From the IMG/VR virus record IMGVR_UViG_3300042332_001537, positions 1-32,182 of that record: a DNA stretch of 32,182 nucleotides; one strand, given 5' to 3'. Below, one piece after another: positions 2,247-25,029 of this stretch. A program made the translations under genes and the position numbers. Under the pieces are notes generated by a model. The model saw only the letters and a list, made by a program, of their open reading frames with translations. It did no database searches and was not told the DNA's origin. Source of the DNA: a virus. The first letter of the stretch is position 1, and every line of letters starts with the position of its first letter.

Positions 2247-4139
2247 TTATCGTGTATTATTTCCGTTTAGATAACTTGAAGAAGAAATATAACTGGAGCC
2301 GGATATATCACCGCCTGATGATATATCATCAGAAACCATATTAACCGTAGAATAATTTAGGTCCATTTGAAGATAAAGATCCTGTAGACCTATAACATCG
2401 TTTGATTTTGGAATTACTGAAATTTCAATGATATTATTCTTAACTGTTGATAAAATATTTATTGAACTTATTTTAATCTCTCCTAAAACATAATCAATGG
2501 TCCCGACATTATTGCGGATAACTGAAGGTGCATCTTTATTCGTGAATAGAAATAAAGAGCCGGTGGTCTCATTAAGGGGTTTGTCTGATAGGTAAACTGT
2601 ATCAGAAATGCCACTAACGGTGAATCCTGACGACTTTATGTTATAACCATTGATATTTTTAATATGAAATGAATTCCCAAAGCATGTTTCATAATTTGCA
2701 AAGGTATTTAACACTACTCTCACATCTCTTCTTAACTGAATTTTTGTTATATTAGATGTTATAGCGGCATGACTATCATCAATTAATTTTTGAAATCTGC
2801 TATACTTAAATCTGGCACCGAAACTGTTCAAATCATAAGATTTTGAATAACTCTGTAGGTTGTTTAATACTACGCTCTGAACAAACTCGGGCGATGGAGC
2901 AAGATTTGGATTATAATATACTTCGCTGAACACTTCAAGAAAAAGATATTTTAAATCAATAATCTCTGGAACTATTCCACTTACCGCATAACGTTTTAAC
3001 TTATTTTTAAGATTATCTTTAATGCTATTTGGCACAAAATTGCCATAAAACGGCTTGATTGTGATAAAAACTTTACCATATTGAGGTGGAGATAAAGTTT
3101 CACCGCCATATGCAGCAACGCTTTCAGCTTCTGGATATATTCTTGGAATTATTGATTCATAATCTTCTGGAGTTACACATCTCCCCTGAGCAGCATAGTT
3201 TTTGGGGGCCAGATTCTTGATTGAATTTATTGATTCAATTTCTTTACCGCCACTGGAAGCAATATTTGTTGTGACTACAGACACCCCAGATGTTACAGAA
3301 TTGTTGTTATTGTCTACAAGTCGCCCAATAAACGAAAAAGAAGATACACCATTAGCAGTAGATTCATTAGTAGTAACATAAGAGACTTCAATATAATTTT
3401 GATTACTTAAGCTAGCTCCAAAGATTTCGTCTCCGAAAATGAGTTCATATCTTTGATCCTCAATTTCACGGATAAAGAATATTTTTGAGGTTGAATTTAC
3501 GTTAAAAAGATTATCCGCAAATGTGAATTTATTTGATGTTGATACATTAGCACTATCTCTTACGGTCACTCTAATGGTTGAAGTATCAATTTTCGGATTA
3601 TCTAAAATAAATTTTTGATTTGGATTCAAAGAATCTACAGTGAAAGTATCAATTACGAATGAGCCTTCAATAATCTCAATTGAATCAAAAAGAGCAATAT
3701 TATTTACAACCGGCACGGTTATGTCGTTGGCAATAGAAAAGGTATAAGATTCATTTCCAAATGCCAGAGAAGAGCAGACAAGGCCCTTCTTTAGAGTTAA
3801 TGAAATTGGGCTGCTAGAAAAAGATGAAGTATCAACGAAAAAAGAAATATTAGCCCGTGCTGCAGTAGAACTCCTCGGCAAGTAGCCGATTTCTCTGGCA
3901 GCGGAAACGACATTTTCTCTTAAAGTTGCACTATCAAGAAATGCTTCATTGGAAAGCATATTTCCAATGAAGGCATTTGTGTAGGTATTATATGCAAGAA
4001 CGTCTATAATTGCCGATAGATTTGAGCCTTCAAAATCATAATCGGTAAAGTTTGAATTAGACCTTAGATACTCTTTTAGAGCTATCCTAATTTGGTCATA
4101 ATCTAATGTGGTGAAATTGACTATGGGTGATGTAGCCAT
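2247..4139 (-). CDS. 6: Baseplate wedge subunit gp6
   Basis: A 630-residue protein, close to T4 gp6 (660 residues), with the N-terminal pattern of T4-like gp6: ALKEYLRSNSNFTDYDFEGS, then SNEAFLDSATLRENVVSAAREIGYLPRS. A baseplate J-like middle region contains AAQGRCVTPEDYESIIPRIY around residues 315-335. gp6 dimers join the six wedges into the continuous ring of the baseplate and of the contractile tail. The start codon overlaps the gp25 stop by one base (TAATG), so the two are translationally coupled. Expression should be late, from the promoter before gp25. Confidence 0.93.
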   Translation of the reverse strand: MATSPIVNFTTLDYDQIRIALKEYLRSNSNFTDYDFEGSNLSAIIDVLAYNTYTNAFIGNMLSNEAFLDSATLRENVVSAAREIGYLPRSSTAARANISFFVDTSSFSSSPISLTLKKGLVCSSLAFGNESYTFSIANDITVPVVNNIALFDSIEIIEGSFVIDTFTVDSLNPNQKFILDNPKIDTSTIRVTVRDSANVSTSNKFTFADNLFNVNSTSKIFFIREIEDQRYELIFGDEIFGASLSNQNYIEVSYVTTNESTANGVSSFSFIGRLVDNNNNSVTSGVSVVTTNIASSGGKEIESINSIKNLAPKNYAAQGRCVTPEDYESIIPRIYPEAESVAAYGGETLSPPQYGKVFITIKPFYGNFVPNSIKDNLKNKLKRYAVSGIVPEIIDLKYLFLEVFSEVYYNPNLAPSPEFVQSVVLNNLQSYSKSYDLNSFGARFKYSRFQKLIDDSHAAITSNITKIQLRRDVRVVLNTFANYETCFGNSFHIKNINGYNIKSSGFTVSGISDTVYLSDKPLNETTGSLFLFTNKDAPSVIRNNVGTIDYVLGEIKISSINILSTVKNNIIEISVIPKSNDVIGLQDLYLQMDLNYSTVNMVSDDISSGGDISGSSYISSSSYLNGNNTR

Positions 4140-4540
4140 TAACGTGTTGGTTGAAGAGCAAAGGTTAATTGTTGGGGCTGGGCATCAATTCCGATAATAT
4201 CATATCTTATGACAACATCGTAGGCATTTTCATCATAATTAGGATTTACGTCAACAGATGATAATGATACTCTAGGCTCATAGTTTCTTATCGTATTATC
4301 AATTTCACTTTGAATATTAGAAGCAGTGGATTCGGTTAGGTTTTCAAATAGGCTTCTAGAAACACTACACCCAAGATTACTTTGAAAAAATCTCTCACCT
4401 TGCAGAGTATAGACTAGATTACGAATAGAGCGAGATATTGCTGTTTCATTTTTTATGACAATTAGATCAAACGTTAAAGGGCTAACCTTAAAGGAAGAAG
4501 AAATGTCTTTGAAAGATTGTCTTTTTCGCTCTACTGCCAT
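4139..4540 (-). CDS. 25: Baseplate wedge subunit gp25
   Basis: 133 residues, against 132 for T4 gp25. It carries the GPW/gp25 family landmarks: SISRSIRNLVYTLQGERFFQ-like text near residues 34-53, SNLGCSVSRSLFENLTE after it, and the family's conserved EPR (NYEPRVSLSSVDV, about residues 88-100). gp25 is the sheath-nucleating wedge component of contractile tails; the old lysozyme label for the family is not supported by any catalytic motif here. It is the first gene of the late gp25-gp6-gp7-position operon and sits 24 nt downstream of a T4-type late promoter. Confidence 0.93.
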   Translation of the reverse strand: MAVERKRQSFKDISSSFKVSPLTFDLIVIKNETAISRSIRNLVYTLQGERFFQSNLGCSVSRSLFENLTESTASNIQSEIDNTIRNYEPRVSLSSVDVNPNYDENAYDVVIRYDIIGIDAQPQQLTFALQPTR

Positions 4541-4752: not shown

Positions 4753-5496
4753 ATGGAAAGCGTAGATTTTAAGGGTTTGTATGAATCTTATAGAAGTGTT
4801 TATACTGAAGAAGTAGAGGAGCTTGATGAGATGAAAGAGGGCTATACCGATCCAAAATTCAATAGAAAAGAATATTTAGCCAAACTCTCAAAACGGGGTG
4901 GCATGGGGATGGGCACGAAAGAAGATCCTCATGGTTATAGAGACCCTAAAATGGCTAAAGTTGGTGCAGAATTTGTAAAAAGGACAACTGCACGATCCAA
5001 GTCAAAAAAGTCTGGAGAGCCCGATGAATATAAAACTGAAAAGGAATCACAATCAAAACTGAGATCTACCAATGAATCCACCGATCTATATGATCTAGTT
5101 CTAGAATATCTTCTTGATGAAGGTCTTTGCGAATCCGTTGAAAATGCTGAGATTATGATGGCCCACATGAGCGAGAGTTGGGTTGATGCTATTGTTGAAG
5201 AAAAGAAAAGTGATTTAGATGAAGAATTAACTGGGGAGAGAAGAAGAAGAGCTGTTAAGAAAAACTCTGAATTGCGGCGTTCTGGGGAGTCTTTTGGATC
5301 CAATACCAGGTCTACCTTACTTAACTTAATGAGGGGTAGTGAAGACCAGACAAGTTTTGGTAAAGGGAATAAAGCAAACCGCAGGCGCGGTTATAATGTT
5401 CGCGACACTTCTAATGCTCCATATCAAGATGAGTGGAGAAGTAGTCACAATAAAAATCGTGGGGTAAAAAATAAAAAATCTGGAAACTACAATTAA
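4753..5496 (+). CDS. Late protein with MS-x-x-W module and basic C-terminus, probable virion protein
   Basis: 247 residues. The N-terminal motif LYESYRSVY (9-17) lies at the same position as LYESYASIY in the gene at 8829. Residues 112-149 form a module, LLDEGLCESVENAEIMMAHM followed by SESWVDAIVE, shared with the genes at 6755 and 8829. After it comes a basic tail (GERRRRAVKK, then Arg/Lys/Asn-rich to the end). The layout, an acidic front, an IVE site like those cut by T4 prohead protease, and a basic tail, suggests a head or core protein, but this is inference. It is followed by a strong terminator. Confidence 0.85.
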   Translation: MESVDFKGLYESYRSVYTEEVEELDEMKEGYTDPKFNRKEYLAKLSKRGGMGMGTKEDPHGYRDPKMAKVGAEFVKRTTARSKSKKSGEPDEYKTEKESQSKLRSTNESTDLYDLVLEYLLDEGLCESVENAEIMMAHMSESWVDAIVEEKKSDLDEELTGERRRRAVKKNSELRRSGESFGSNTRSTLLNLMRGSEDQTSFGKGNKANRRRGYNVRDTSNAPYQDEWRSSHNKNRGVKNKKSGNYN

Positions 5497-6722: not shown

Positions 6723-6730
6723 CATAAATA
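6723..6730 (+). promoter_or_regulatory. T4-type late promoter
   Basis: CATAAATA, 24 nt before the ATG at 6755; it serves the coupled genes 6755-8782. Confidence 0.75.
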
Positions 6731-6754: not shown

Positions 6755-7030
6755 ATGTCTATTGATACTGCCGAACTGAAGAAGCTCATTGCAAAGAAGT
6801 CCGCTAAATTGAGTAAACCACCAGCTCACGGAAAGACAAATAGAACCCAAACAGATGAGGCTGAAAGAGAATTTAAGAGTGAACGTGATAAGTTAATGAA
6901 AGAATACAAAGAAATCGTTGCAGATATTTTATTCAATGAGGGTTTTGTTGATTCTCAGGAATCTTTGAATGTGATTCTTAATGTTATGAGCGAGAGTTTT
7001 ATTGAAAACTTAGCCAGGAATTCTAAATGA
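6755..7030 (+). CDS. Late protein with MS-x-x-(W/F) module
   Basis: 91 residues. Residues 1-50 are Lys-rich and helical. Residues 53-87 (ADILFNEGFVDSQESLNVIL, then NVMSESFIENL) repeat the module seen at 4753 and 8829, with Phe instead of Trp after MSES. The ATG at 6755 is chosen over the out-of-frame ATG at 6751. Its TGA overlaps the next ATG (ATGA), coupling it to the capsid-cargo cassette; it may be a scaffold or core partner, which is inference. Confidence 0.85.
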   Translation: MSIDTAELKKLIAKKSAKLSKPPAHGKTNRTQTDEAEREFKSERDKLMKEYKEIVADILFNEGFVDSQESLNVILNVMSESFIENLARNSK

Positions 7031-7665
7031 AAACTTTTGATGAATTTATCAATGAAGCTAAGCACGGAGCGAGTAGTTCAAGAGAAAGAAGGCAACAAAG
7101 GGGTGAAAATCTTTCAAAAATTCTAAAGAGAAGAATGGGGACTAGGGCCAAAATCCGGGGTGGAAGTGATGAACATATTCACACAACTTCTGATCCAGAT
7201 GATGTCTCAATAGAGATTAGAAAATATAAAAATCCCGCGCATTATGCGGCAGGAGAAACTCCAAAAGTCAATACTATTAATGGTAAAAACGTAGTCGTTA
7301 AAAATTCGGAAAGAGCATTTAGGGCAAATCAACTAAGAAAGCAAGTAACCAAGAATCGTAGAAACCCAAAGGGCGCAGTATTTACCACTGATATTGTTCC
7401 AAATTTAGAAAGAGGTCACGGGGATTTTGAGAATATCAAAAAGAGAACTCAAAATCTCAAAAAGGCTGTTGAAAATGTTCCAAGAGAAATTAAAAAGGCC
7501 GGGGCAAAGTCTGGTGATGTTGTTATTGGAAAACCCGGTCAAACTCAAAGTGGTGGTCCAGAAAAAGCCGGAAGAAATTCCAGAGCTAAGTTATATAAAA
7601 AGCTACTTCCCAATGCCAGTAAAATGAGCCCCGTTACAAATCGTATGATGGGTAAAGTAGAATGA
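7027..7665 (+). CDS. Putative capsid-targeted internal (injected) protein, basic
   Basis: 212 residues. The N-terminus MKTFDEFINEAKHG closely resembles the capsid-targeting tag of T4 internal proteins (MKTYQEFIAEA type). I-N-E before A fits the T4 gp21 prohead-protease rule (L/I)-x-E|A, so a mature protein would start at residue 12. The remainder is very rich in Lys and Arg, with no recognised fold; RSRAKLYKKLL-like basic helices suggest nucleic-acid contact. It is coupled to both neighbours by ATGA overlaps. The targeting role is inferred from the tag. Confidence 0.85.
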   Translation: MKTFDEFINEAKHGASSSRERRQQRGENLSKILKRRMGTRAKIRGGSDEHIHTTSDPDDVSIEIRKYKNPAHYAAGETPKVNTINGKNVVVKNSERAFRANQLRKQVTKNRRNPKGAVFTTDIVPNLERGHGDFENIKKRTQNLKKAVENVPREIKKAGAKSGDVVIGKPGQTQSGGPEKAGRNSRAKLYKKLLPNASKMSPVTNRMMGKVE

Positions 7666-8044
7666 AAACATTTGAAGAATTTTTGTTTGAGGCAAATCAA
7701 CCAAACCCGATGCACTAAAAACTATCAGCAAAAACTGGGAAAGAAGACCAAATTATAAAGGCGTCAACGTATATGCAACTCAAAATAAAGATCATATAAG
7801 AGTTCACGACTTATTTGTGCCGTCTCATTTGAGGAGTAAAGGTGTTGGCGGTAGAGTTATGAAAGGAGTCACAAAATTAGCAGATAAACAGGGCTCTAAA
7901 GTATCTTTAAATCAGGCCCCAGCTCCAGGTTATAAGAAAAAGTTGGACACATTTTATAAAAATTTTGGGTTCAAGCCCAATAAAGGAAGAAACAAAGACT
8001 TTACCACAAGAGATACACATATCAGGCAACCAAAAGATAAATAA
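7662..8044 (+). CDS. Capsid-tagged GNAT acetyltransferase, interrupted by a -1 frameshift
   Basis: The first frame gives MKTFEEFLFEANQPNPMH and stops at 7716. The -1 frame, open from 7691 to the TAA at 8042, gives PDALKTISKNWERRPNYKGV onward, with LFVPSHLRSKGVGGRVM (R-x-x-G-x-G acetyl-CoA loop) and FYKNFGFKP near the end, both GNAT hallmarks. The joined protein is about 127 residues and carries the same tag and L-F-E|A cleavage site as its neighbours. At 7703-7709 the bases are A AAC CCG, a textbook X XXY YYZ heptamer in the correct phase, with GAGG ten bases upstream. The alternative is a one-base deletion or sequencing error. Confidence 0.75.
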
Positions 8045-8054
8045 AATAAAAAAG

Positions 8055-8339
8055 ATGCAACCAAACAAGACATTTGAAGAATTTCTTTCTGAGGCCATTG
8101 CAGCCACTAGAGCTACAACTAGAGGCAGAAAAATTACAGGTGCAGCACAGAAAATAACTGCTCAAAACGACCGCAGGGAAGAGGCCCGAGCCCGTCAGCG
8201 TGAAAGAGAGGCTCAACGGCAGAGAGATATTGAATATGCTCAAGAGCGAAGAGCTAATCCAGAACTTATTAAAAAGGAAGCACGAAAAAGAACCCTTCCC
8301 AGTAGAATGGAAAGAGCCGCACAAAAGTTGGGACTATGA
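8055..8339 (+). CDS. Putative capsid-targeted internal protein, charged helical
   Basis: 94 residues from the ATG at 8055; a frame extension to 7965 overlaps the GNAT gene and is ignored. The tag is displaced by four residues: MQPNKTFEEFLSEAIAA, with L-S-E|A as the probable cleavage site. The rest is a long Arg/Glu/Gln helix, probably coiled coil, ending SRMERAAQKLGL. It is coupled to the next gene by ATGA. No enzymatic motif is visible. Confidence 0.8.
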   Translation: MQPNKTFEEFLSEAIAATRATTRGRKITGAAQKITAQNDRREEARARQREREAQRQRDIEYAQERRANPELIKKEARKRTLPSRMERAAQKLGL

Positions 8340-8782
8340 AATCTTTTAATCAGTTTATAAACGAGGCACCTAAAAAATTACGTTTTACTAGGCTGTATCA
8401 CGGAACGTCTCCAGAATCTGCTGAGAAAATTAAAAAGCATGGATTTAAGTCACCAGAGGTTTATGCTTCAACATCAAGAGGAATTGCATCGGGATTTGGG
8501 GCAAGATATAGCGAAAAGCCGAAGACTTTAGAACTCTTGGTTCCAACTAAAAGTATTAAGCCGAATGTTCCGGCAAAAGCCGTTAAAACTGATGGACAGA
8601 GAGGAACTGATATTTGGGGAAAAGATCACTTTTCAGTTGCAATGGATAGAGATTATGCCACAAAGAAAAGAGTGAAAGATTCATCTGGGATTGTTAGGGC
8701 GCCCAAAACGGAAAAGGAATTTCATCATTTATTGCCAAAGGCTTTTCAGAGGAAAACCAAAACTCAACCAAAACGAAAATAG
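8336..8782 (+). CDS. Capsid-tagged putative ADP-ribosyltransferase
   Basis: 148 residues. After the tag MKSFNQFINEA (I-N-E|A cleavage rule) the protein reads LYHGTSPESAEKIKKHGF (20-37), then VYASTS (42-47), ASGFGARY and TLELLVP. HGT in the first strand, the Ile-Lys-x-x-Gly helix and a Tyr plus STS in the second strand are the usual front half of the ADP-ribosyltransferase fold. The catalytic Glu cannot be assigned with certainty. T4 packages and injects the ADP-ribosyltransferase Alt, so a similar role on host RNA polymerase or ribosomes is plausible but unproven. It has a basic C-terminus. Confidence 0.72.
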   Translation: MKSFNQFINEAPKKLRFTRLYHGTSPESAEKIKKHGFKSPEVYASTSRGIASGFGARYSEKPKTLELLVPTKSIKPNVPAKAVKTDGQRGTDIWGKDHFSVAMDRDYATKKRVKDSSGIVRAPKTEKEFHHLLPKAFQRKTKTQPKRK

Positions 8783-8798: not shown

Positions 8799-8806
8799 GA
8801 TAAATA
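8799..8806 (+). promoter_or_regulatory. T4-type late promoter
   Basis: GATAAATA, 22 nt before the ATG at 8829. Confidence 0.78.
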
Positions 8807-8828: not shown

Positions 8829-9077
8829 ATGGACATTAGAGAACTTTCTAATTTGTATGAATCTTATGCGTCCATTTACGAGATGAAATCTACTGGTAAT
8901 CTAGGGTGTCAAGATAAAGAAACTGATATGCGTGAGCACGTCTTAGATTATCTTGTAAATGAAGGCTACGTTGATTCTTATGAGTCGGCTGAATGTGTTT
9001 TAGAGGCTATGAGTGATGAATGGTTGGAAAGTATTGTCGAGGCAAAGAAAGATGAAGTTAAGCGTCCGGTAGAATAA
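8829..9077 (+). CDS. Small late protein with LYESY and MS-x-x-W modules
   Basis: 82 residues, acidic. It has LYESYASIY at 9-17, then VLDYLVNEGYVDSYESAECV (38-57) and EAMSDEWLESIVEAKK (59-74). The I-V-E before A again matches the T4 prohead-protease rule. It is the shortest member of the family with 4753 and 6755 and is almost only the module, so it shows the domain borders. Own late promoter; no clear terminator follows. Confidence 0.85.
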   Translation: MDIRELSNLYESYASIYEMKSTGNLGCQDKETDMREHVLDYLVNEGYVDSYESAECVLEAMSDEWLESIVEAKKDEVKRPVE

Positions 9078-9156: not shown

Positions 9157-9996
9157 TTAACAATAAGGCGAAATAACCTGAATATTACTAAAATTACGGT
9201 TCTTTATGCCATGGTTTTTATATCTATCTTCCGCCGAACCATAACGTTTAAATGCCTCTAAAGGACTTTCTCCGTTTTCAATATCAACAGAATGTCCTGT
9301 AGTTCCACCTTTCCATGAACCTTTCTCGTAGCCAACTTCTTTATTGAAATCTATATCAAGACTACGATAAATTTCAGGTTTTATGAAGTATTTCAGCCAT
9401 TTAAACCAACCGGTTCCGTGTTCATATTGCCGCTCCTCAATATAACAAGTTGCAATAATTTCTTCGCCGTCAAAATCATTGAACTTAAATTTTATCTTGG
9501 GGACAGCTTCTTGTGCCCATCCGACAAACTTTAAATAATTTGGCCGCAATAATTCAGGATTTAGCGAACAATACAAGTTCCATGTTGGAGTCATAAAAGA
9601 ATGGTGAGCCAGACGTTTAATTTTCCATGGAATTTCAAATAATTTGGTATGGTCTGAGTTTTTCTTATCGGTGCTAGACCAACAACCGGGTTGAATGCCA
9701 TAATGAACGTGAACGTATTCATCTTGTATATGAAATCCATATTGATATTGAATGTATTCCCAATATCCTTTGTTTTCTGAAGTGCTCCAGGCGTATTGTG
9801 ATGTGTCTACCCATTCTTTTTTGGGTTTAAAGAATTCTGGAATCTGCCACCACCAAGAGCGCGATCCAAGTCTGATATTCAATTGACAATATCTTGTGGC
9901 ATTCTCTCCGGTCTCGTAGTATTCGTCTGGATTGGATACCGTAAATGAATATCCAATATAGTTCTTATCGTCAGAGTAATTTGTTAGTTTAAACAT
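9157..9996 (-). CDS. Conserved phage protein of unknown function, Trp/Tyr-rich
   Basis: 279 residues with unusual aromatic content. Landmarks are RYCQLNIRLGSRSWWWQIPE (35-54), VHYGIQPGCWSSTDKKNSDH, FNDFDGEEIIATCYIE, then DFNKEVGYEKGSWKGGTTGH. I recognise this pattern as a protein conserved in many tailed phages but know no function for it. No signal peptide or membrane segment. It is convergent with the plus-strand late gene at 8829. No clear promoter was seen directly upstream, where only 24 bases separate it from the Lar-like gene. Confidence 0.88.
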   Translation of the reverse strand: MFKLTNYSDDKNYIGYSFTVSNPDEYYETGENATRYCQLNIRLGSRSWWWQIPEFFKPKKEWVDTSQYAWSTSENKGYWEYIQYQYGFHIQDEYVHVHYGIQPGCWSSTDKKNSDHTKLFEIPWKIKRLAHHSFMTPTWNLYCSLNPELLRPNYLKFVGWAQEAVPKIKFKFNDFDGEEIIATCYIEERQYEHGTGWFKWLKYFIKPEIYRSLDIDFNKEVGYEKGSWKGGTTGHSVDIENGESPLEAFKRYGSAEDRYKNHGIKNRNFSNIQVISPYC

Positions 9997-12321: not shown

Positions 12322-13401
12322 TCAACCAATATCTGGAGACTTTAAAGCGACTTCATAAGAAGAAGATTTAGCAAGATCCAATGGAAATTGATGTGAATTT
12401 TTTTCGTGAACGGTTTCAATTCCCAAATTGGCCCGATTTAATACATCGGCCCAGGATGGAATGGTTCTTCCTTGATTATCCTGAATGCTATGGACAAAGT
12501 TAAATCCATTGACATTGAAGGAGAAACACATAACGCCAACGGAGGCAAGCCAGATTCCTACAACAGGCCAGGCTGCCAATAGAAAGTGCAAAGAGCGAGA
12601 GTTATTAAATGAGGCGTATTGCCAGAATAGCCTACCGAAATACGCATGAGCATTTACAATTGAATAAGTCTCTTCATTCTGGCCAAATTTGTAACCATAA
12701 TTTTGAGACTCAGTTTCAGAGGTTTCACGAATAATAGAACTTGTGACCAATGAACCGTGTTGTGCTGCAAAAAGAGCACCACCAAAAACTCCAGCAACCC
12801 CAGCCATGTGGAATGGTGAAAATAGTACATTATGCTCAGACTGTAGCACCATCATAAAATTAAACGTACCACTGATTCCAAGAGGAAGTGCATCACTCCA
12901 AGAACCCTGCCCAAAAGGATAGATGAACAATACTGAAGTTGCGGCAATTGCAGGAGCAGAATAAGCAACTGCAATCCACGGCCTCATACCCAGTCGAAAT
13001 GATAGTTCCCATTCGCGTCCAAGGTAAGTCCAAATACCAATAAGAAAATGGAATACAATAAGTTGCCAACTTCCTCCATTGTATAACCATTCTTCAATAC
13101 TTGAGGCTTCCCAAATTGGGTAAAAATGAAGACCGATAGCATTTGATGTGGGCAAAACTGCAGCGGAAATAATATTATTTCCATACATAAGTGAACCGGC
13201 AATTGGTTCTCTTACCCCATCTAAATCTACTGGCGGATTTGCAATAAATGCAACAATAAAACAAATAGTAGCAGCGAGCAATGTTGGAATCATAAGAACT
13301 CCAAACCATCCCACATATAAACGATTGTTCGTTGAAGTAACCCAGGAACAAAATTGCTCCCAGAGATTACTCTCCGAACGTGTAGCAATTGTAGCAGTCA
13401 T
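12322..13401 (-). CDS. psbA: Photosystem II D1 protein
   Basis: 359 residues, full length, five transmembrane helices. All key D1 residues are in place: Tyr161, Asp170, Glu189, His190, His198, His215, Ser264, His272, His332, Glu333, His337, Asp342 and Ala344, followed by a 15-residue tail for CtpA-type processing. Residue 130 is Glu (LGREWEL), the D1:2 high-light form rather than Gln. There are several unusual substitutions, for example [11 protein letters not shown] at 194-204. It replaces photodamaged host D1 during infection so that photosynthesis continues. No intron. It has its own promoter and terminator and no Shine-Dalgarno. Confidence 0.98.
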
Positions 13402-13452
13402 ATTTGAAAAAAGGGTAGAAAAAGTTCGTAGGGACGAATGTGATTATTATTT

Positions 13453-13471
13453 CTTCTCTCCCCCAGAGAAG
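13453..13471 (-). promoter_or_regulatory. Hairpin in the psbA leader
   Basis: CTTCTCT, five-base G loop, AGAGAAG: a 7-bp stem in the predicted 5' leader of psbA, about 50 nt before the start codon. There is no T tract after it, so a stability or translation role is more likely than termination. Confidence 0.5.
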
Positions 13472-13550
13472 ATATGAGAGACGTATTTGATGTGCAAAGT
13501 CTCGGTAAGCACGGGAGCAAGTTAGGAATCCCTGGCCTGCTTGTGTATGT

Positions 13551-16008: not shown

Positions 16009-16352
16009 TGTAAAAGGTCCTCAAGATCATCAAAGAAATTTTCATCCAATGGAACACAGTCGTCCAGATTAATGTTTGCGGTCATTTCCATTAAATCCTC
16101 TAAAAATTCTTTAGGATAGGTGTCATCGTCATTCAAATCGTACCAGAAGGTTAAATAGCATTCTTCAAAAGGGTTATCCTCATCCTGAAGAGCATAATTC
16201 TTTTGATTTTCAGGAAACCATACAAGATCCATCCAGGTATGAAAATTATTATAAATGGATGTCCATCCGGTCTTCCGACAATGTTCAATCCAATAATTCC
16301 ACCAATTTAGTTTGGTCTTGTCTGTTGCTAAAATAGGTCTTGAGAATGTCAT
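16005..16352 (-). CDS. Small acidic protein of unknown function
   Basis: 115 residues. Trp-rich N-terminal half (LNWWNYWIEHCRKTGW) and very acidic C-terminus (LDDCVPLDENFFDDLEDLLQ). Coupled to the upstream LRV gene by ATGA. No family recognised. Confidence 0.8.
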   Translation of the reverse strand: MTFSRPILATDKTKLNWWNYWIEHCRKTGWTSIYNNFHTWMDLVWFPENQKNYALQDEDNPFEECYLTFWYDLNDDDTYPKEFLEDLMEMTANINLDDCVPLDENFFDDLEDLLQ

Positions 16353-16654
16353 AATGTTGGATGTTGTAGGTAGAACTCGTAGGCTCTTACAGTTTGAATG
16401 ATTTCTCTTGTTGAATTTGGGTTTCTTTCAACCCAATAGCGAACATTCCAATCCTTATCTCGGGCAAGGAGTGTTAGAGTTTCTAGTGGAGTGTTAAGAT
16501 TTTCTGCAACATAACAGCGAACAACAACATTCTCATCTCTGGCAAGAATTGATAGGATTTCTGGAGGTGTGTTGGGGTTTTGTGCAACTCTACAGCGAAC
16601 ATTCCAAACCTTATCTCGGGCAAGAATTGTTAGAGCTTCTAGTGAAGAAGTCAT
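16349..16654 (-). CDS. LRV-repeat protein, three repeats
   Basis: 101 residues built from 24-residue units of the form LTxLARDxxxxVRxxVAxNxNTPxE, the leucine-rich-repeat variant (LRV) pattern, which stacks like HEAT repeats and usually binds proteins. Units begin near residues 6, 30 and 54. The tail NSTREIIQTVRAYEFYLQHP is nearly the same as in the next gene up, so the two are recent duplicates. Coupled by ATGA at both ends. Confidence 0.87.
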   Translation of the reverse strand: MTSSLEALTILARDKVWNVRCRVAQNPNTPPEILSILARDENVVVRCYVAENLNTPLETLTLLARDKDWNVRYWVERNPNSTREIIQTVRAYEFYLQHPTL

Positions 16655-17109
16655 AATGTTGGATGCTCCTTATAAAACTCATAGGCTCTTACAGTTTGAA
16701 TGATTTCTCGGGTTGCGTTTGGGTTGTTTGCAACATTCCAGCGAACCCACAAATCTTCATCTTGGGCAAGAATTGTTAGAGTTTCTGGTGGTGTGTTGGA
16801 GTTTTGTGCAACACCACAGCGAACATTCTCATTCTCATCTTGGGCAAGAATTGTTAGGATTTCTGGTGGTGTGTTGGGGTTGTATGCAACACCGCTGCGA
16901 ACATCCCCATCCTCATCTCGGGCAAGAATTGTTAGGATTTCTGGTGGTGTGTTGGGGTTGCGTGCAACTCCACAGCGAACACCCCCATCCTTATCTCGGG
17001 CAAGAAGTGTTAGGATTTCGGGTGGTGTGTTGGGATTTCGGGCAACAGTCCAGCGAACAATAAAGCACTCATCTTGAGCAAGAATTGTTAGGTTTTCTGG
17101 GGGTGCCAT
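16651..17109 (-). CDS. LRV-repeat protein, five repeats
   Basis: 152 residues from the ATG at 17109 (the frame has an unlikely TTG two codons earlier). It has five 24-residue LRV units, for example LTLLARDKDGGVRCGVARNP, whose DNA forms near-identical 72-bp direct repeats. Such repeats can gain or lose units by slippage; the three-unit neighbour and the fragment at 28225 show this has happened. Probably a protein-binding scaffold; partner unknown. Confidence 0.88.
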   Translation of the reverse strand: MAPPENLTILAQDECFIVRWTVARNPNTPPEILTLLARDKDGGVRCGVARNPNTPPEILTILARDEDGDVRSGVAYNPNTPPEILTILAQDENENVRCGVAQNSNTPPETLTILAQDEDLWVRWNVANNPNATREIIQTVRAYEFYKEHPTL

Positions 17110-17111
17110 AA

Positions 17112-17315
17112 TCAATAAATGTAAATTGCATCAGTATCTCCATCTTTGTCGACTTCATGTGGCGCCAAGTCATTATCATAGAGGTTGACATTGAGTTCTA
17201 ACTTCACCATTTCAACATCCAAATTAGTAGTACAACCACCCCCATAGCCCCGAATTACTATCATAATATCATCGGGATATTCGCTCAAGGCTTCAATCAA
17301 TTCGGCTTTTGTCAT
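17112..17315 (-). CDS. Small protein, tandem paralogue of 17324
   Basis: 67 residues from the ATG at 17315, chosen because MTKAELIEALSEYPDDIMIV aligns residue for residue with the start of the gene at 17324. Both end with TDAIYI followed by an aromatic residue or His. IVIRGYGGGC and acidic turns suggest a small beta-rich domain common in phage hypotheticals. Function unknown. Confidence 0.82.
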   Translation of the reverse strand: MTKAELIEALSEYPDDIMIVIRGYGGGCTTNLDVEMVKLELNVNLYDNDLAPHEVDKDGDTDAIYIY

Positions 17316-20568: not shown

Positions 20569-20596
20569 TTGATCGGGGTTGCTTTGGGACTCTTTA

Positions 20597-20651
20597 AGAA
20601 TAAACCGGTTTGGCCAGTCTGTCAAGCCTTGACCGATAAGCGTTTCTTATC
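20597..20651 (-). promoter_or_regulatory. Class A promoter plus palindrome (gene 20137)
   Basis: -10 TATTCT at 20597-20602, spacer 17, -35 TTGACA at 20620-20625; GATAAG-N5-CTTATC at 20635-20651. Confidence 0.88.
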
Positions 20652-20664
20652 ACTTAATAAGCAT

Positions 20665-20688
20665 AAGAAAAGGCCCCCGAAGGAGCCT
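20665..20688 (-). terminator. Terminator of gene 20703
   Basis: AGGCTCC TTCG GGGGCCT then TTTCTTA. Confidence 0.82.
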
Positions 20689-20702
20689 CTTAAAATACTA
20701 AT

Positions 20703-21026
20703 TTATTCACCAAACCTTCTAGGATTTCTTTCTACAATATCGCCCCAACAGGATATAAAGATTCTTCCTGAACTGTGATCATAACATAGCGTTGGAATAT
20801 ATGTGTCGCCCATGTTTATATAAGTGATACCTTTACTTTCAAGAAAATCATCTTGTTTTGATTGAATATATTCTTTGCCATGTGCTCTTAGAAAGTTATT
20901 AACCTTACTCAACATCCTCCCTGGGGAATAACTTTCCTTCTCCATTATTTTTCTGATAGCTATTGCATCTTCTCTGCAATCTGCTAAAGATTCTTCAATG
21001 GTCTTGACAGATGGGAGGCGAACCAT
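20703..21026 (-). CDS. Early protein of unknown function
   Basis: 107 residues beginning MVRLPSVKTIEESLADCRED, helical to about 60, then ITYINMGDTYIPTLCYDHSS, which is beta-like. No family recognised. Leader GGTCCCAAAGCAACCCC directly before the ATG. Confidence 0.8.
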   Translation of the reverse strand: MVRLPSVKTIEESLADCREDAIAIRKIMEKESYSPGRMLSKVNNFLRAHGKEYIQSKQDDFLESKGITYINMGDTYIPTLCYDHSSGRIFISCWGDIVERNPRRFGE

Positions 21027-21052
21027 GGAAGGGGTTGCTTTGGGACCTTTTA

Positions 21053-21107
21053 AGAATATACTGGTTTGGCTGGTTTGTCAAGCCTTGACCGATAAGCGTT
21101 TCTTATC
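21053..21107 (-). promoter_or_regulatory. Class A promoter plus palindrome (gene 20703)
   Basis: TATTCT at 21053-21058, spacer 17, TTGACA at 21076-21081; palindrome 21091-21107. Confidence 0.88.
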
Positions 21108-21120
21108 ACCTAATAAGCAT

Positions 21121-21145
21121 AAGAAAAGGCCCCCCGAAGGAGCCT
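21121..21145 (-). terminator. Terminator of gene 21152
   Basis: AGGCTCC TTCG GGGGGCCT then TTTTCTT. Confidence 0.82.
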
Positions 21146-21151
21146 ATAAGA

Positions 21152-21448
21152 TTAGAAAGCTAGTATGGAGATACGTTGTATTTCGTTATGCTTTGCTGGA
21201 TTAAAGTCCAGGAAGTCAGTATCATGGAAATGATAAGTTTCCCCACAAACTTTAATCCATGTTGATTGACAGTTACTGTAACAAGTGTTGTAAACACGGC
21301 GCCATTGATCGCCAACTCTACCCCTTACCATAAAATTGGTGGGTATTTTGCTACCATATCCTGTTACAGACCGCCCGGATTTAGGCGCAGAAACTACTTT
21401 AACGTCAATTGTTGACGTTAATTCAGAGATGTATTTAATGGTGACCAT
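21152..21448 (-). CDS. Early protein of unknown function
   Basis: 98 residues beginning MVTIKYISELTSTIDVKVVS. RGRVGDQWRRVYNTCYSNCQ and ICV-like Cys pairs (Cys56, Cys60, Cys68) could hold a metal, but the spacing is not a standard zinc ribbon. Beta-rich. Unknown function. Confidence 0.78.
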   Translation of the reverse strand: MVTIKYISELTSTIDVKVVSAPKSGRSVTGYGSKIPTNFMVRGRVGDQWRRVYNTCYSNCQSTWIKVCGETYHFHDTDFLDFNPAKHNEIQRISILAF

Positions 21449-21474
21449 GGAAGGGGCTGCTTTGGGACTCTTTA

Positions 21475-21503
21475 AGAATATACTGGTTTGGCTGGTATGT
21501 CAA
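21475..21503 (-). promoter_or_regulatory. Class A promoter (gene 21152)
   Basis: TATTCT at 21475-21480, spacer 17, TTGACA at 21498-21503. Only a degraded palindrome upstream. Confidence 0.87.
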
Positions 21504-21539
21504 GCCATGACCCATAAGTGTTGCTAATGGTCCGAAGGC

Positions 21540-21630
21540 TTGACATACTACTAAGAATGGCCCATAATAAAGAAAATGAGACAGCGGGCGAACCGCATTT
21601 ATAGAAAATGCCACGCTAATCCTGCTTGTT
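21540..21630 (+). ncRNA. Structured repeat element, copy 2, with a full promoter
   Basis: Plus-strand TTGACA at 21540, spacer 17, CATAAT at 21563; then stem GCGG-GCGAA-CCGC at 21584-21596 and core CCACGCTAATCCTGCTT. Confidence 0.6.
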
Positions 21631-21643
21631 AATAAAAATATAC

Positions 21644-21673
21644 AAAAAAAAAAGAAGAGAACCGAATCCCTTC
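21644..21673 (-). terminator. Terminator of gene 21687
   Basis: Stem GAAGGGA/TTCTCTTC around TTCGG, followed by ten T on the minus strand. Confidence 0.8.
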
Positions 21674-21686
21674 TTATATCTTTATA

Positions 21687-21992
21687 TCAGTGCTTAGAAC
21701 TCCAGGCTATAATCTTATTGGCTGCTTCTTCAATTGATTTTGCATTACATTTACGAAACTTTTCTGTTTTTGATCTACTGAATTGTTCAATCTTGCCTGC
21801 TCCGATATGAAACATAGCATAACGGGAGTTATGATAAATCCCGTTAATCCATTGTTCCTTTGAATCTAACGAAACCTTGACGATTAGACTGGCTTTCTCT
21901 TCTCCACCTAGTGTGGAACTTTCCACATAATAATAAGGAAAGATTCCATTCAATAGATCAACCAATTTGGTCTTATCTTCGGTGGTGGTCAT
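21687..21992 (-). CDS. Early protein of unknown function
   Basis: 101 residues. KTKLVDLLNGIFPYYYVESS, then beta segments (SLIVKVSLDSKEQWINGIYH) and a C-terminal helix EEAANKIIAW. Likely one small alpha/beta domain. No family recognised. Leader ACAAACCACC before the ATG. Confidence 0.8.
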   Translation of the reverse strand: MTTTEDKTKLVDLLNGIFPYYYVESSTLGGEEKASLIVKVSLDSKEQWINGIYHNSRYAMFHIGAGKIEQFSRSKTEKFRKCNAKSIEEAANKIIAWSSKH

Positions 21993-22019
21993 GGTGGTTT
22001 GTGGGCTGGTGACTTTTTA

Positions 22020-22075
22020 AGAATATCAGGCTTGACAGTAGTTGTCAAGCCCCTGAATGATAAGCAGTTCTTATC
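22020..22075 (-). promoter_or_regulatory. Class A promoter plus palindrome (gene 21687)
   Basis: TATTCT at 22020-22025, spacer 17, TTGACA at 22043-22048; palindrome 22059-22075. GGCTTGACA-N5-TGTCAAGCC spans the spacer. Confidence 0.9.
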
Positions 22076-22091
22076 ATTGACAATCTATACC

Positions 22092-22286
22092 CTAGAAGCC
22101 TGGATTTAGATAATTTCCATTACGTGCATCGTAAACAATGATTAGTCTGCAAGCTAAATCTGATAATACTTGCTGACGATTACCAGTAACCCGGCAAAGG
22201 TTTTGATTACACCAGTTGCGGGCATCTTGCAGTGTGCGGGCTTGATGTAATGTTTCTTTAGTGTAGAAATTGCGAATAGTAAACAT
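22092..22286 (-). CDS. Small early protein of unknown function
   Basis: 64 residues: MFTIRNFYTKETLHQARTLQ, a helix with NWCNQNLCRV, and IIVYDARNGNYLNPGF at the end. A compact strand-helix-helix-strand unit. No family recognised. Confidence 0.8.
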   Translation of the reverse strand: MFTIRNFYTKETLHQARTLQDARNWCNQNLCRVTGNRQQVLSDLACRLIIVYDARNGNYLNPGF

Positions 22287-22316
22287 GTTGGCTCGGGGTT
22301 GCTTTGGGACTTTTTA

Positions 22317-22345
22317 AGAATATACCATCTACAAGGGTATGTCAA
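22317..22345 (-). promoter_or_regulatory. Class A promoter (gene 22092)
   Basis: TATTCT at 22317-22322, spacer 17, TTGACA at 22340-22345. Confidence 0.88.
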
Positions 22346-22381
22346 GCCTTGACTGATAAGCATTGCTGATGGTCCGAAGGC

Positions 22382-22475
22382 TTGACAAACCAACTTCACT
22401 GCTGCTATACTTTAAGAAAGAAAATAAGCGAACGACTCGCGTTTATAAAAAAGGCCACGCTAATCCTGCTCTTAA
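22382..22475 (+). ncRNA. Structured repeat element, copy 3, with a full promoter
   Basis: Plus-strand TTGACA at 22382, spacer 18, TATACT at 22406; stem GCGA-ACGAC-TCGC at 22428-22440; core CCACGCTAATCCTGCTC. Confidence 0.6.
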
Positions 22476-22492
22476 ATAAAAATATAAGAATA

Positions 22493-22519
22493 TAAGAAAA
22501 AGCCTCCAATTAAGGAGGC
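22493..22519 (-). terminator. Terminator of gene 22535
   Basis: GCCTCC TTAATT GGAGGC then TTTTTC. Confidence 0.88.
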
Positions 22520-22534
22520 ATAAGAATATGTTTA

Positions 22535-22819
22535 TCAATCAATAATAAATCCTATTTTGTGTACCCCATCAGGAATTTCTCCAAGTATAACTTCATATTT
22601 GCGGCCATATTCTGTGCTTACCTCATAAAATGGGATCTCAACTTCTAGTAAATCGTCGGGATCAATACATTCAATTCTAATATCATCTCCAAAATACTTG
22701 GCAGTTTCCTCCGGTAAGGAAACCTTCATTTCCTTACAAAATTGTAGCACTTTAATGTGTTTTTGGTGCTCCTGATCTAAAGGTGAGCGAAAACCCTTTA
22801 CACTGATTGACAATGACAT
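22535..22819 (-). CDS. Early protein of unknown function
   Basis: 94 residues, acidic, beginning MSLSISVKGFRSPLDQEHQK; a helix KVLQFCKEMKVSLPEETAKY, then a beta-rich half. No family recognised. Confidence 0.8.
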   Translation of the reverse strand: MSLSISVKGFRSPLDQEHQKHIKVLQFCKEMKVSLPEETAKYFGDDIRIECIDPDDLLEVEIPFYEVSTEYGRKYEVILGEIPDGVHKIGFIID

Positions 22820-22845
22820 TGTTTTGATTGGTTGGGGACTTTTTA

Positions 22846-22900
22846 AGAATAACAGGAGTTTAGGCGGTTGTCAATGGTTGATTGATAAGAACTGCTTATC
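22846..22900 (-). promoter_or_regulatory. Class A promoter plus palindrome (gene 22535)
   Basis: TATTCT at 22846-22851, spacer 17, TTGACA at 22869-22874; GATAAGAACTGCTTATC at 22884-22900. Confidence 0.88.
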
Positions 22901-22901
22901 G

Positions 22902-23123
22902 TTACCAATTCGCTGCAATTTCCTTGGCATTATCGCCAAGGAAACTATAACAAGCATCGGGAACTGGCCTACCCAAAATTTGACAACAACGCACCAATTC
23001 ATCGCCGTCTGCCTGTATCCTGACCATGCCGTAGCAATTTACATTTAACCATTTCTTGGGGTCTTCGCTGGGAGTGGCTGGAATGTAGGCCATGGCGCCA
23101 TTCTCATTTTGGGCAATTAACAT
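22902..23123 (-). CDS. Small early protein, paralogue of 26884
   Basis: 73 residues. RIQADGDELVRCCQILGRPV, then FLGDNAKEIAANW at the C-terminus, is shared with the gene at 26884. The two Cys in RCC are conserved. The N-termini differ. Function unknown. Confidence 0.84.
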   Translation of the reverse strand: MLIAQNENGAMAYIPATPSEDPKKWLNVNCYGMVRIQADGDELVRCCQILGRPVPDACYSFLGDNAKEIAANW

Positions 23124-23149
23124 GGTTGCGGAGATCGGTTGACTTGTTT

Positions 23150-23194
23150 AGTATAGGGGCAGTTCTGGCTGATACTGGTTGGTGGTGTGCCGGT
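23150..23194 (-). promoter_or_regulatory. Class B promoter (gene 22902)
   Basis: -10 TATACT at 23150-23155; box ACCGGCACAC at 23185-23194, 29 nt upstream. No TTGACA. Confidence 0.75.
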
Positions 23195-23238
23195 TGTAGA
23201 AGTGTCCTAGAGGCGTCTGGAAGGGTCTGTAAGGTGCC

Positions 23239-23310
23239 TAGAATACTCTTAACAACATGACACAGCGTAAGAAGCGCCTAAACATAAACGGGCACGCTAA
23301 TCCTGCTTTT
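23239..23310 (+). ncRNA. Structured repeat element, copy 4
   Basis: TAGAAT at 23239; stem GCGT-AAGAA-GCGC at 23265-23277; core GGCACGCTAATCCTGCTT. Confidence 0.5.
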
Positions 23311-23331
23311 ATTAATTATATAAATAATACC

Positions 23332-23352
23332 AAAAAACCTCCAATAAGGAGG
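23332..23352 (-). terminator. Terminator of gene 23360
   Basis: CCTCC TTATT GGAGG then TTTTTT. Confidence 0.85.
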
Positions 23353-23359
23353 CTATTGT

Positions 23360-23686
23360 TTATACTGACTGTAAGAACTGTAAAGACTTAACTAAATCTC
23401 TTTTTACCCATGTTGGTAGATTATTATACTGATCACTTTCAATAATATCTTCATGGATGATTAGACATCCTTTGATATAACAATTACCTTTCCGACCTTT
23501 CATTTCATTTACATTATTTACGGTTATTGCGGCTTGCATATTCCAAAAGAAAGAGGAAACATTGTCAGCCAGTTTCTGGCTTCCACTACCCTTAAGGTTT
23601 AGCCTATTAGCTAGTCTCCTGCCCGTCATTGTTGAAAAATGACGTAGAAACGGGATCTGTTCATTGGTGGGGAAGGGGCAGATCAT
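23360..23686 (-). CDS. Early protein of unknown function
   Basis: 108 residues, basic N-terminal half (MTGRRLANRLNLKGSGSQKL) and amphipathic helix WVKRDLVKSLQFLQSV at the end. No family recognised. Confidence 0.8.
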   Translation of the reverse strand: MICPFPTNEQIPFLRHFSTMTGRRLANRLNLKGSGSQKLADNVSSFFWNMQAAITVNNVNEMKGRKGNCYIKGCLIIHEDIIESDQYNNLPTWVKRDLVKSLQFLQSV

Positions 23687-23714
23687 CGGCTTGTCTGGGG
23701 CGGTTGACTTGTTT

Positions 23715-23744
23715 AGTATAGGGCATCCATTGCCGTTCTGTCAA
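23715..23744 (-). promoter_or_regulatory. Class A promoter, 18-nt spacer (gene 23360)
   Basis: TATACT at 23715-23720 and TTGACA at 23739-23744; downstream AAACAAGTCAACC is shared with class B promoters. Confidence 0.82.
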
Positions 23745-23836
23745 GCCTTATTTTTCCCCAATTCTGGCAGACTGGATGGGACATAATACCTTAAAAGCGA
23801 AAATGCAGGAAAAACACAAAATATAATTGCAGGCAT

Positions 23837-23872
23837 CAAAAAAGCCGGGAGAGCTTTTATACCCTCCCCGGC
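23837..23872 (-). terminator. Terminator of the 24133-23886 operon
   Basis: GCCGGGGAGG...CTCTCCCGGC then TTTTTTGA; strong stem. Confidence 0.88.
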
Positions 23873-23885
23873 CTGTTATACTCAG

Positions 23886-24131
23886 TTAAAACATAAGAAT
23901 TAAAGAACAAATAATAGTAACAGCATCCCAATTCATCCCCGTACTAATTAAACTAACACTAAGAAAAACAAGGTTGATTACACCCATAATAAACCACCAA
24001 TCTTTTTTGCGTGGTTTATTCAATAGGCGTTTCAATTTGATGTTTTCCTCTCTTAATTCTTTAACACATTCTGGGCACCCCCACTGGTTTTGTGGAATAT
24101 CTCCATGTGTTGGACATTTAATGTTATTCAT
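23886..24131 (-). CDS. Zinc-ribbon-like small membrane protein
   Basis: 81 residues from the ATG at 24131, one base after the stop of the preceding gene; the longer frame overlaps that gene. Cys6-x-x-His9 and Cys19-x-x-Cys22 (IKCPTHGD, WGCPECVKEL) form a probable zinc knuckle. A short charged coil follows, then two hydrophobic helices (about 46-62 and 67-81). Likely anchored in the host membrane with the zinc domain in the cytoplasm; function unknown. Confidence 0.78.
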   Translation of the reverse strand: MNNIKCPTHGDIPQNQWGCPECVKELREENIKLKRLLNKPRKKDWWFIMGVINLVFLSVSLISTGMNWDAVTIICSLILMF

Positions 24132-24132
24132 A

Positions 24133-24822
24133 TCAATGACCACCGCACAATGCAAGGGTTTTGCTACCGGATGCCTGACGATAAAGACTCGCATTAGCTC
24201 CAGCATTAGAGCCAATCACCGCACCATTGCCTGTGGCACCGCCCAGCTTTACCGATCTAAACCTCTTTTTTGCTACCTCAATAGCAGTAATTTCTTTATG
24301 CTCATGGTCTCCCCTTTCTTTCTTCATCTCTTCTAAACGTTCCCGAACCTTAAGAACAAATGCCTTATTAAAATTGGGCTTAAATCCCGCCGTATTAAAC
24401 TCCACACCTTGAAGTTCTGCTAGTAGTTTTTCACCTTGAAGAGCAGCATTACATTCTTTTTGCATAGTCTCTAGTAGAAACTCATAGTATAGTTTAGTCT
24501 GAATTTGTTGAGCTTCGGTTCCTATACACTTAAATGTTGAGGTCTTACGGCCAGTAGACTTAGAAGTGTAGACATATCCACAGGCATCATAGAATCTTGC
24601 AACCGCACAGAATAGCATAAATTCTGCATCATTCATTCTGCCAGTAGTAAGATAGTCTTCTTCTAAGACTTGAGGCGTGGTAGCATCATCTACTGTAACG
24701 CCATATTGTTTACACAATTTATCAATCATTGCAGCAGCCGCTGATGATTCGCCTTCAAATGTAGACGACTCCTGCAAGCGGAGCATTGTGGCGATCTTGT
24801 CTAGGATTGCTTGGCGGTCCAT
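24133..24822 (-). CDS. DUF2786-family protein
   Basis: 229 residues. The N-terminal ILDKIATMLRLQESSTFEGE, with AAAAMIDKLCKQYGV (6-41), is the DUF2786 domain signature (helical, found in phages and plasmids). A central region with FYDACGYVY, and a Gly/Ala-rich tail (GGATGNGAVIGSNAGANASL) follow. The DUF2786 role is not established. First of a two-gene operon. Confidence 0.87.
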   Translation of the reverse strand: MDRQAILDKIATMLRLQESSTFEGESSAAAAMIDKLCKQYGVTVDDATTPQVLEEDYLTTGRMNDAEFMLFCAVARFYDACGYVYTSKSTGRKTSTFKCIGTEAQQIQTKLYYEFLLETMQKECNAALQGEKLLAELQGVEFNTAGFKPNFNKAFVLKVRERLEEMKKERGDHEHKEITAIEVAKKRFRSVKLGGATGNGAVIGSNAGANASLYRQASGSKTLALCGGH

Positions 24823-24848
24823 TGTGGTTTGGATCGGTTGACTTGTTT

Positions 24849-24893: not shown

Positions 24894-24937
24894 CTTAGAA
24901 GTGTCTGGAAGGGACCTAGAAGCGTCTACAATGACCT

Positions 24938-25010: not shown

Positions 25011-25029
25011 AATAAAAATATAAAAATAT

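What the first reader, a model, noticed from the sequence alone, without database searches (positions are those of the whole stretch)
7027..8782. A cassette of four proteins carrying a T4-like capsid-targeting tag: probable injected effectors
Four consecutive genes start MKTFDEFINEA, MKTFEEFLFEA, (MQPN)KTFEEFLSEA and MKSFNQFINEA. Seen directly: near-identical 11-residue N-termini on otherwise unrelated proteins, ATGA coupling, one late promoter. Established: T4 internal head proteins carry an MKTYQEFIxEA-type tag that is removed by gp21 at (L/I)-x-E|A; all four tags fit this rule. Inference: these are packaged into the head, trimmed, and delivered with DNA into the next cyanobacterium. Their bodies (GNAT, ADP-ribosyltransferase-like, two basic proteins) suit immediate host takeover.
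Basis: partly seen in the sequence, partly recalled or inferred. Interest (0 to 1): 0.9.

Follow-up and report, generated by a model that had tools for sequence, protein, structure and literature searches.

The report
Head-packaging tag on cyanophage effector genes
A virus of cyanobacteria carries a row of four otherwise unrelated small proteins that share the 'address label' phage T4 uses to load proteins into its head, so the virus probably injects them with its DNA to disarm or reprogramme the host at once; labelled relatives have been found in purified virus particles, but these four have not yet been looked for.

Summary
The tag is real: four consecutive ORFs (7027-8782) begin with a T4-type capsid-targeting sequence, and motif controls give almost none by chance. 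One correction: gene 2 is frame-displaced in this record (18 codons, then stop). Near-identical contigs carry it intact as tag + GNAT.

The tag conserves the residues that T4 mutants tie to targeting (4, 7) and processing (8, 10). In Synechococcus phage S-CREM2, whose virion was analysed by mass spectrometry, every protein with the tag in its first 15 residues was detected (3 of 3 strict motif, 5 of 5 broad), including SAM hydrolase, kinase and cytidylyltransferase. Tagged cytidylyltransferases were also detected in S-SM1 and S-SZBM1 virions.

Gene 4 has an ADP-ribosyltransferase-like fold (Tpt1/PARP-like, unlike T4 Alt). GNAT+ART is a pairing known from injected 'polyvalent' proteins; here the domains are mostly separate, individually tagged, exchangeable genes.

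Best explanation: a cassette of injected effectors, loaded by a T4-type tag and trimmed by gp21. Packaging of these four proteins, tag cleavage and all targets remain untested. The principle is known in T-even phages; its cyanophage use on enzymatic, polyvalent-type payloads is the new variant.

The parts
6724..6730 (+). ATAAATA, candidate T4/cyanophage-type late promoter element upstream of the operon
   Evidence: position; not enriched over chance in the window; motif NATAAATA published for cyanophages (PMC2984593)
6755..7030 (+). First ORF of the operon, 91 aa, no tag; C-terminal LisH-like 'EGFVDSQESLNVILNVMSESF' module shared with ORFs 4753 and 8829; TGA overlaps the ATG of gene 1
7027..7665 (+). 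Gene 1: tag MKTFDEFINE|A (codons 1-10) plus basic 202-aa body; homologues in S-SRM01 and IMG/VR; fold unresolved
   Evidence: pN/pS 0.02-0.08 against relatives
7662..7718 (+). Gene 2, 5' fragment: tag MKTFEEFLFE|A, then stop after 18 codons in this record
   Evidence: intact tag+GNAT frame in L020-L028
7706..8044 (+). Gene 2, GNAT acetyltransferase body, in a frame displaced by one base from the tag
8055..8339 (+). Gene 3: MQPN-KTFEEFLSE|A (tag shifted by three residues) plus 81-aa basic, charged body; real gene by purifying selection
   Evidence: pN/pS 0.02-0.05
8336..8782 (+). Gene 4: tag MKSFNQFINE|A plus ADP-ribosyltransferase-like body (YHGT...VYAST)
8800..8806 (+). ATAAATA, candidate late promoter of the next unit
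8829..9077 (+). Next unit: 82-aa ORF with leader MDIRELSNLYESYASIYE, a possible second leader class

Best explanation
The four genes form a late-expressed, exchangeable cassette of internal head proteins of a T4-like cyanophage. Each has an 11-residue N-terminal capsid-targeting sequence that binds the prohead core; the gp21 protease then cuts after (L/I)-x-E, the mature bodies stay in the head with the DNA, and they enter the next cyanobacterium with it. The bodies act before phage genes are expressed: gene 2 (GNAT) and gene 4 (ART-like) most likely acetylate and ADP-ribosylate host proteins or nucleic acids; genes 1 and 3 are basic proteins of unknown target. Shown here: the tag, its residue pattern, its spread over unrelated bodies, purifying selection on the bodies, the ART-like fold, and a link between tag and virion detection in related phages. 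Inferred: packaging, cleavage and injection of these four proteins, and what they do in the host.
For: T4 rule: T4 IPII/IPIII start MKTYQEFIAE|A; residues 4/7 target and 8/10 process. In 11 GNAT relatives chosen by body, residue 4 is F/Y, 7 is F, 8 is I/L, 10 is E, 11 is A/G, while 5 and 9 vary; 28 distinct cassette tags agree (about 12 of them were found by the tag scan itself). Among the window's four tags, key residues show 10 synonymous against 4 replacement codon differences, so the protein is constrained, not the DNA. Virion proteomics (PMC10665884 Table 3): in S-CREM2 the strict motif [FY]..F[LI].E in the first 15 residues marks 3 of 219 CDS, all detected (p=0.013; 0.0027 among non-structural proteins); a broader motif marks 5, all detected (p=6.5e-4; 4.4e-5), including SAM hydrolase, kinase and cytidylyltransferase. 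S-SM1 and S-SZBM1 cytidylyltransferases start MKKFSAFLNEA and MRFRQFIIEA and were MS-detected. Modularity: of 22 GNAT loci, 20 carry the tag in frame and two (L029, L039) have it beside an interrupted frame; neighbours vary. L036/L037 fuse gene 1-like and GNAT bodies and keep an internal tag, TFEEFMVE|S, at the junction. Machinery: relative G001 encodes gp21 and a gp23 whose N-terminus fits MLFE|AP. Function: GNAT matches DarB-like/PLxRFG phage proteins; ART-like model matches Tpt1/KptA, PARP, DarT1.
Against: No mass spectrometry exists for these four proteins or their close relatives. The S-CREM2 test rests on few proteins and one phage, and the broad motif was set after seeing the data; if the search is widened to 30 residues one undetected protein (gp71) joins. 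The authors warn that non-structural proteins may be carry-over after CsCl purification. A tagged S-SZBM1 protein (ORF192) is not in its list of 30 detected proteins. Gene 2 is broken in this record. Gene 3's tag is shifted by three residues. ART fold matches have low TM-scores (0.3-0.4, best E 1.8e-3), and one relative has His for the catalytic Tyr. Gene 1's fold search gave nothing reliable.
Confidence: 0.82

Rival explanations
1. The four are packaged by the tag but act inside the head, as prohead core or DNA-condensing proteins, and are not effectors.
For: Bodies of genes 1 and 3 and most tagged bodies are very basic (median pI 10.1), as T4 internal proteins are. T4 IPIII mutants show head-assembly defects.
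Against: GNAT and ART-like bodies are enzyme folds; tagged relatives include SAM lyase, cytidylyltransferase and P-loop kinase. Content changes between close relatives, unlike core head genes. T4 Ip1-3 are anti-restriction proteins.
Confidence: 0.12
2. The shared N-terminus is a DNA-level device (recombination or translation-start cassette) and does not direct packaging.
For: Bodies are shuffled between relatives; tags sit at ATGA junctions.
Against: Codons differ synonymously among the four tags while key residues hold; the conserved positions match T4 targeting/processing residues; tags are associated with virion detection in S-CREM2; an internal tag survives at a fusion junction.
Confidence: 0.04
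3. The tag marks proteins for some other site (membrane or tail), and virion detection of tagged proteins reflects co-purification.
For: The authors of the S-CREM2 and S-SCSM1 proteomes raise co-purification of abundant proteins. Some tagged bodies are cell-wall hydrolases.
Against: Only 28 of 195 non-structural S-CREM2 CDS were detected, yet all those with the N-terminal tag were; the tag matches an experimentally defined T4 head-targeting sequence.
Confidence: 0.06

Closest known systems
T4/T-even internal proteins IPI, IPII, IPIII with capsid-targeting sequence (PMC9026906, PMC12373910)
   Same: Same N-terminal sequence logic and cleavage rule; small basic proteins with unrelated bodies; genes vary between relatives
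   Different: Cyanobacterial virus; four tagged genes in a row near baseplate genes; bodies include predicted enzymes (GNAT, ART-like) rather than only small inhibitors; packaging not yet shown
Polyvalent proteins of phages and conjugative elements, including DarB-like/PLxRFG giants (PMC5512222)
   Same: GNAT and ART domains occur side by side and are predicted to be injected with DNA; P-loop kinase-like and metallopeptidase-like relatives also present
   Different: Here each domain is mostly a separate short gene with its own tag; only L036/L037 fuse two, keeping an internal tag
T4 Alt, injected ADP-ribosyltransferase
   Same: Predicted head-packaged ADP-ribosyltransferase-fold protein
   Different: Fold matches Tpt1/KptA and PARP-type proteins; YHGT motif, not the R-S-E site of Alt; cyanomyoviruses were reported to lack alt, modA and modB (PMC2984593)
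Virion-associated SAM hydrolase, kinase and cytidylyltransferase of Synechococcus phage S-CREM2 (PMC10665884)
   Same: Carry the same type of N-terminal tag and were detected in virions
   Different: Their authors did not link them to a targeting tag in the text read here; bodies unrelated to genes 1-4

Membership tests
T4-type internal head proteins (capsid-targeting sequence) | N-terminal sequence with aromatic residue 4 and Phe 7 (targeting) | tested here: met
   All four genes; gene 3 shifted by three residues; T4 residues
T4-type internal head proteins (capsid-targeting sequence) | (L/I)-x-E at residues 8-10 for gp21 cleavage | tested here: met
   INE, LFE, LSE, INE; rule L/I-X-E from PMC9026906
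T4-type internal head proteins (capsid-targeting sequence) | Unrelated bodies share only the leader | tested here: met
   Four dissimilar bodies in the window; 38 clusters (BLAST E 1e-4) among 83 tagged proteins
T4-type internal head proteins (capsid-targeting sequence) | Phage encodes a gp21 protease and a gp23 with the same cleavage type | tested here: inconclusive
   Window is a 32-kb fragment without them; present in relative G001 (gp21 homologue; gp23 MLFE|AP)
T4-type internal head proteins (capsid-targeting sequence) | Protein present in mature virions with the leader removed | not testable with these tools
   Only indirect: tagged proteins of S-CREM2, S-SM1 and S-SZBM1 detected in virions
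Polyvalent proteins | Two or more effector domains in one polypeptide | tested here: not met
   Separate genes in the window; a fusion occurs only in relatives L036/L037
GNAT acetyltransferases (gene 2) | Acetyl-CoA-binding motif (Q/R)-x-x-G-x-(G/A) | tested here: met
   R58-x-x-G61-x-G63 invariant or nearly so in 11 sequences; Pfam GNAT 4.7e-6 for intact L020 copy
Tox-ART-HYD2 ADP-ribosyltransferases (gene 4) | His in strand 1, Tyr in strand 2, Asp in strand 5 | tested here: inconclusive
   H22 in strand 1 and Y43 in strand 2 of the model; D92 invariant but just before strand 5; L030 has His at position 43
T4 Alt family | R-S-E active site, Alt/VIP2-type ART | tested here: not met
   Fold search finds Tpt1/KptA, PARP, DarT1, not Alt; YHGT motif

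The most novel reading that the evidence does not exclude
T4-like cyanophages use the capsid-targeting tag as a general, open delivery code: a large and fast-changing set of effectors, including the domain kit of polyvalent proteins split into single tagged genes, is loaded into heads and injected, with an ART of non-Alt type standing in for the missing Alt. A second leader (MDxxELxNLYESYxxIYE) seen here on the same body type may be an alternative head-targeting label.
Probability: 0.4. Interest if true: 0.78.

Novelty: new variant of a known kind. Interest (0 to 1): 0.62.

Why it matters
It gives a simple sequence rule that predicts which of the many uncharacterised cyanophage genes encode injected proteins, and ties existing virion proteomes (SAM hydrolase, kinase, cytidylyltransferase) to one delivery mechanism. 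It offers a concrete candidate for how cyanophages, reported to lack T4 Alt/ModA/ModB, could act on their host before phage genes are expressed.

Tried and rejected
Gene 1 fold: AlphaFold2 pLDDT 70.6; Foldseek best E 0.03 (RNase E DNase I-like domain, TM 0.27); not used. Pfam, PHROGs and PADLOC gave nothing firm for genes 1, 3 and 4. phmmer of gene 4 against PDB: no hit. tblastn of gene 4 in the phage collection: no hit. The idea that the LisH-like module of flanking ORFs marks virion proteins found no support in the S-CREM2 proteome. The late-promoter motif is not enriched in the window. A ribosomal frameshift in gene 2 was considered and dropped, because close relatives encode the gene in one frame. 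Library searches found no paper that combines the capsid-targeting sequence with cyanophages beyond a reference-list mention; this covers open-licence papers only.

Full report
What is there. The window is a 32,182-base virus record with T4-type baseplate genes (gp25 at 4139-4540 minus), psbA (12322-13401 minus) and a PhotoRC-II RNA: a fragment of a T4-like cyanophage. Four consecutive plus-strand ORFs start MKTFDEFINEA, MKTFEEFLFEA, MQPN-KTFEEFLSEA and MKSFNQFINEA. ATGA overlaps join ORF 6755 to gene 1, gene 1 to gene 2, and gene 3 to gene 4; genes 2 and 3 are 10 bases apart.

A correction. In this record gene 2 stops after 18 codons and its GNAT body lies in a frame displaced by one base. 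Eight near-identical contigs and the 89%-identical L028 hold the gene in one frame.

More than chance. A tag-type DNA pattern hits the window three times and its reversed control not at all; a stricter pattern hits six of seven other phage records 15 times in all, control none. In S-CREM2 the strict protein motif is expected about 0.08 times at 219 N-termini. At the key residues the window's tags differ synonymously 10 times and by replacement 4 times, so the protein, not the DNA, is constrained. Bodies are under purifying selection (pN/pS 0.00-0.08 for genes 1, 3 and 4, apart from one near-identical pair with only two differences, 0.28; 0.07-0.22 for GNAT relatives).

Match to T4. T4 IPII and IPIII start MKTYQEFIAE|A. 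In IPIII, residues 4 and 7 govern targeting, 8 and 10 processing, and gp21 cuts after L/I-X-E (PMC9026906). The cleanest test is the GNAT set, because the scan that found most of it used body peptides only: in 11 sequences residues 1, 2, 3, 7 and 10 are invariant, 4 is F/Y, 8 is I/L, 11 is A/G, 6 is E/Q, and 5 and 9 vary. A wider set of 28 distinct tags, about 12 of which were found by the tag scan itself, agrees: 4 is F/Y in 27, 7 is F in 27, 8 is I/L in 26, 10 is E in 27, 11 is A/S/G in 25. The same residue types appear at the N-terminus of gp23 in relatives: GLLTE|AP (S-CREM2), ILTE|AAP (S-SZBM1), MLFE|AP (G001); these gp23 sites are inferred, not measured.

Link to virions. S-CREM2 has a published virion proteome with coordinates (PMC10665884 Table 3). 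The strict motif, defined from T4 and the window, marks three of 219 CDS in the first 15 residues: SAM hydrolase, an APH/ChoK-like kinase and cytidylyltransferase. All three were detected (p=0.013; 0.0027 among non-structural proteins). A broader motif, set after seeing the data, marks five, all detected (4.4e-5 among non-structural proteins). If the window is widened to 30 residues, Cas9 (detected) and gp71 (not detected) join. Cytidylyltransferases of S-SM1 (MKKFSAFLNEA) and S-SZBM1 (MRFRQFIIEA) were also detected by mass spectrometry (PMC3037559 names T4-GC190; PMC9146016 Table 1; sequences). Against this, tagged S-SZBM1 ORF192 is not in the list of 30. The S-CREM2 authors caution about co-purification.

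Spread and modularity. Recognised bodies include SAM lyase, cytidylyltransferase, glucosaminidase and lytic transglycosylase. Of 22 GNAT relatives, 20 carry the tag in frame, and L029 and L039 have it beside an interrupted frame. Neighbours vary: ART-like, a second 'AHYT' family that may be ART-like, P-loop kinase, a metallopeptidase-like protein. L036 and L037 fuse a gene 1-like body to the GNAT and keep TFEEFMVE|S at the junction, a would-be second cleavage site. B23 has two tagged genes (one GNAT) in the corresponding place beside gp25; the gp46-gp25 interval is a published variable region of Synechococcus phages.

Bodies. Gene 2: GNAT by Pfam (4.7e-6 in intact L020) with a conserved acetyl-CoA motif; its phage matches are DarB-like/PLxRFG giants and S-CRM01 acetyltransferase g185, itself tagged. 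Gene 4: model with a confident core matching Tpt1/KptA, PARP and DarT1, best E 1.8e-3, TM 0.3-0.4; His22 and Tyr43 sit in strands 1 and 2, the Asp is uncertain. In polyvalent proteins one GNAT family typically neighbours an ART in one polypeptide (PMC5512222); here the pair is split into tagged genes. Genes 1 and 3: no function assigned.

Interpretation. The cassette is best read as injected internal head proteins. T4 Ip1-3 share only the leader and each blocks a different type IV restriction enzyme (PMC12373910), so anti-defence is as good a guess as host takeover for genes 1 and 3. Cyanomyoviruses were reported to lack alt, modA and modB (PMC2984593); an injected ART of another type could fill that gap, which is inference.

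Novelty. The tag, its cleavage and its use on varied small proteins are known in T-even phages, and reviewers proposed it as a general device of T4-like phages. The cyanophage use, the link to existing cyanophage proteomes, and the split polyvalent-type payload are new as far as the open-licence library shows.

Noticed in passing
window 9157-9996, minus: Next to the cassette: 279-aa protein matching Pfam Acb3 (CBASS inhibitor), E 5e-49, so two kinds of candidate anti-defence genes lie side by side.
   Followed up: no
window 20574-30607, minus: About 14 copies of a 55-77-base intergenic repeat between small minus-strand ORFs; read on the minus strand many copies hold TTGACA-17-TATTCT, a sigma70-like early promoter.
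   Followed up: partly
window 16349-17115, minus: Two ORFs made of about 26-residue repeats (PPEILTILARDEDGDVRxxVAxNPNT), 78-base spacing.
   Followed up: no
window 4753-5496 and 8829-9077, plus; L028 4913-5623; L006 7600-7812: A second leader type (MDxxELxNLYESYxxIYE). The L028 protein with this leader shares its body with B23 gp253, which carries the capsid-targeting tag; IYE|A also fits the cleavage rule.
   Followed up: partly
L036 and L037, 3194-4231: Fusion of gene 1-like and GNAT bodies with an internal tag at the junction.
   Followed up: partly
T4 NC_000866 18966-19130, minus: T4 gene 61.1 (54 aa) starts MKTFKEFIKED, fitting the strict tag motif; annotated only as hypothetical.
   Followed up: no
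L007 7704-10313, minus (S-CREM2 gp12): Virion-detected Cas9-like protein with a tag-like stretch RFASFMAEA starting near residue 18, a possible longer leader.
   Followed up: no
window 13439-13524, minus: PhotoRC-II RNA just upstream of psbA.
   Followed up: no
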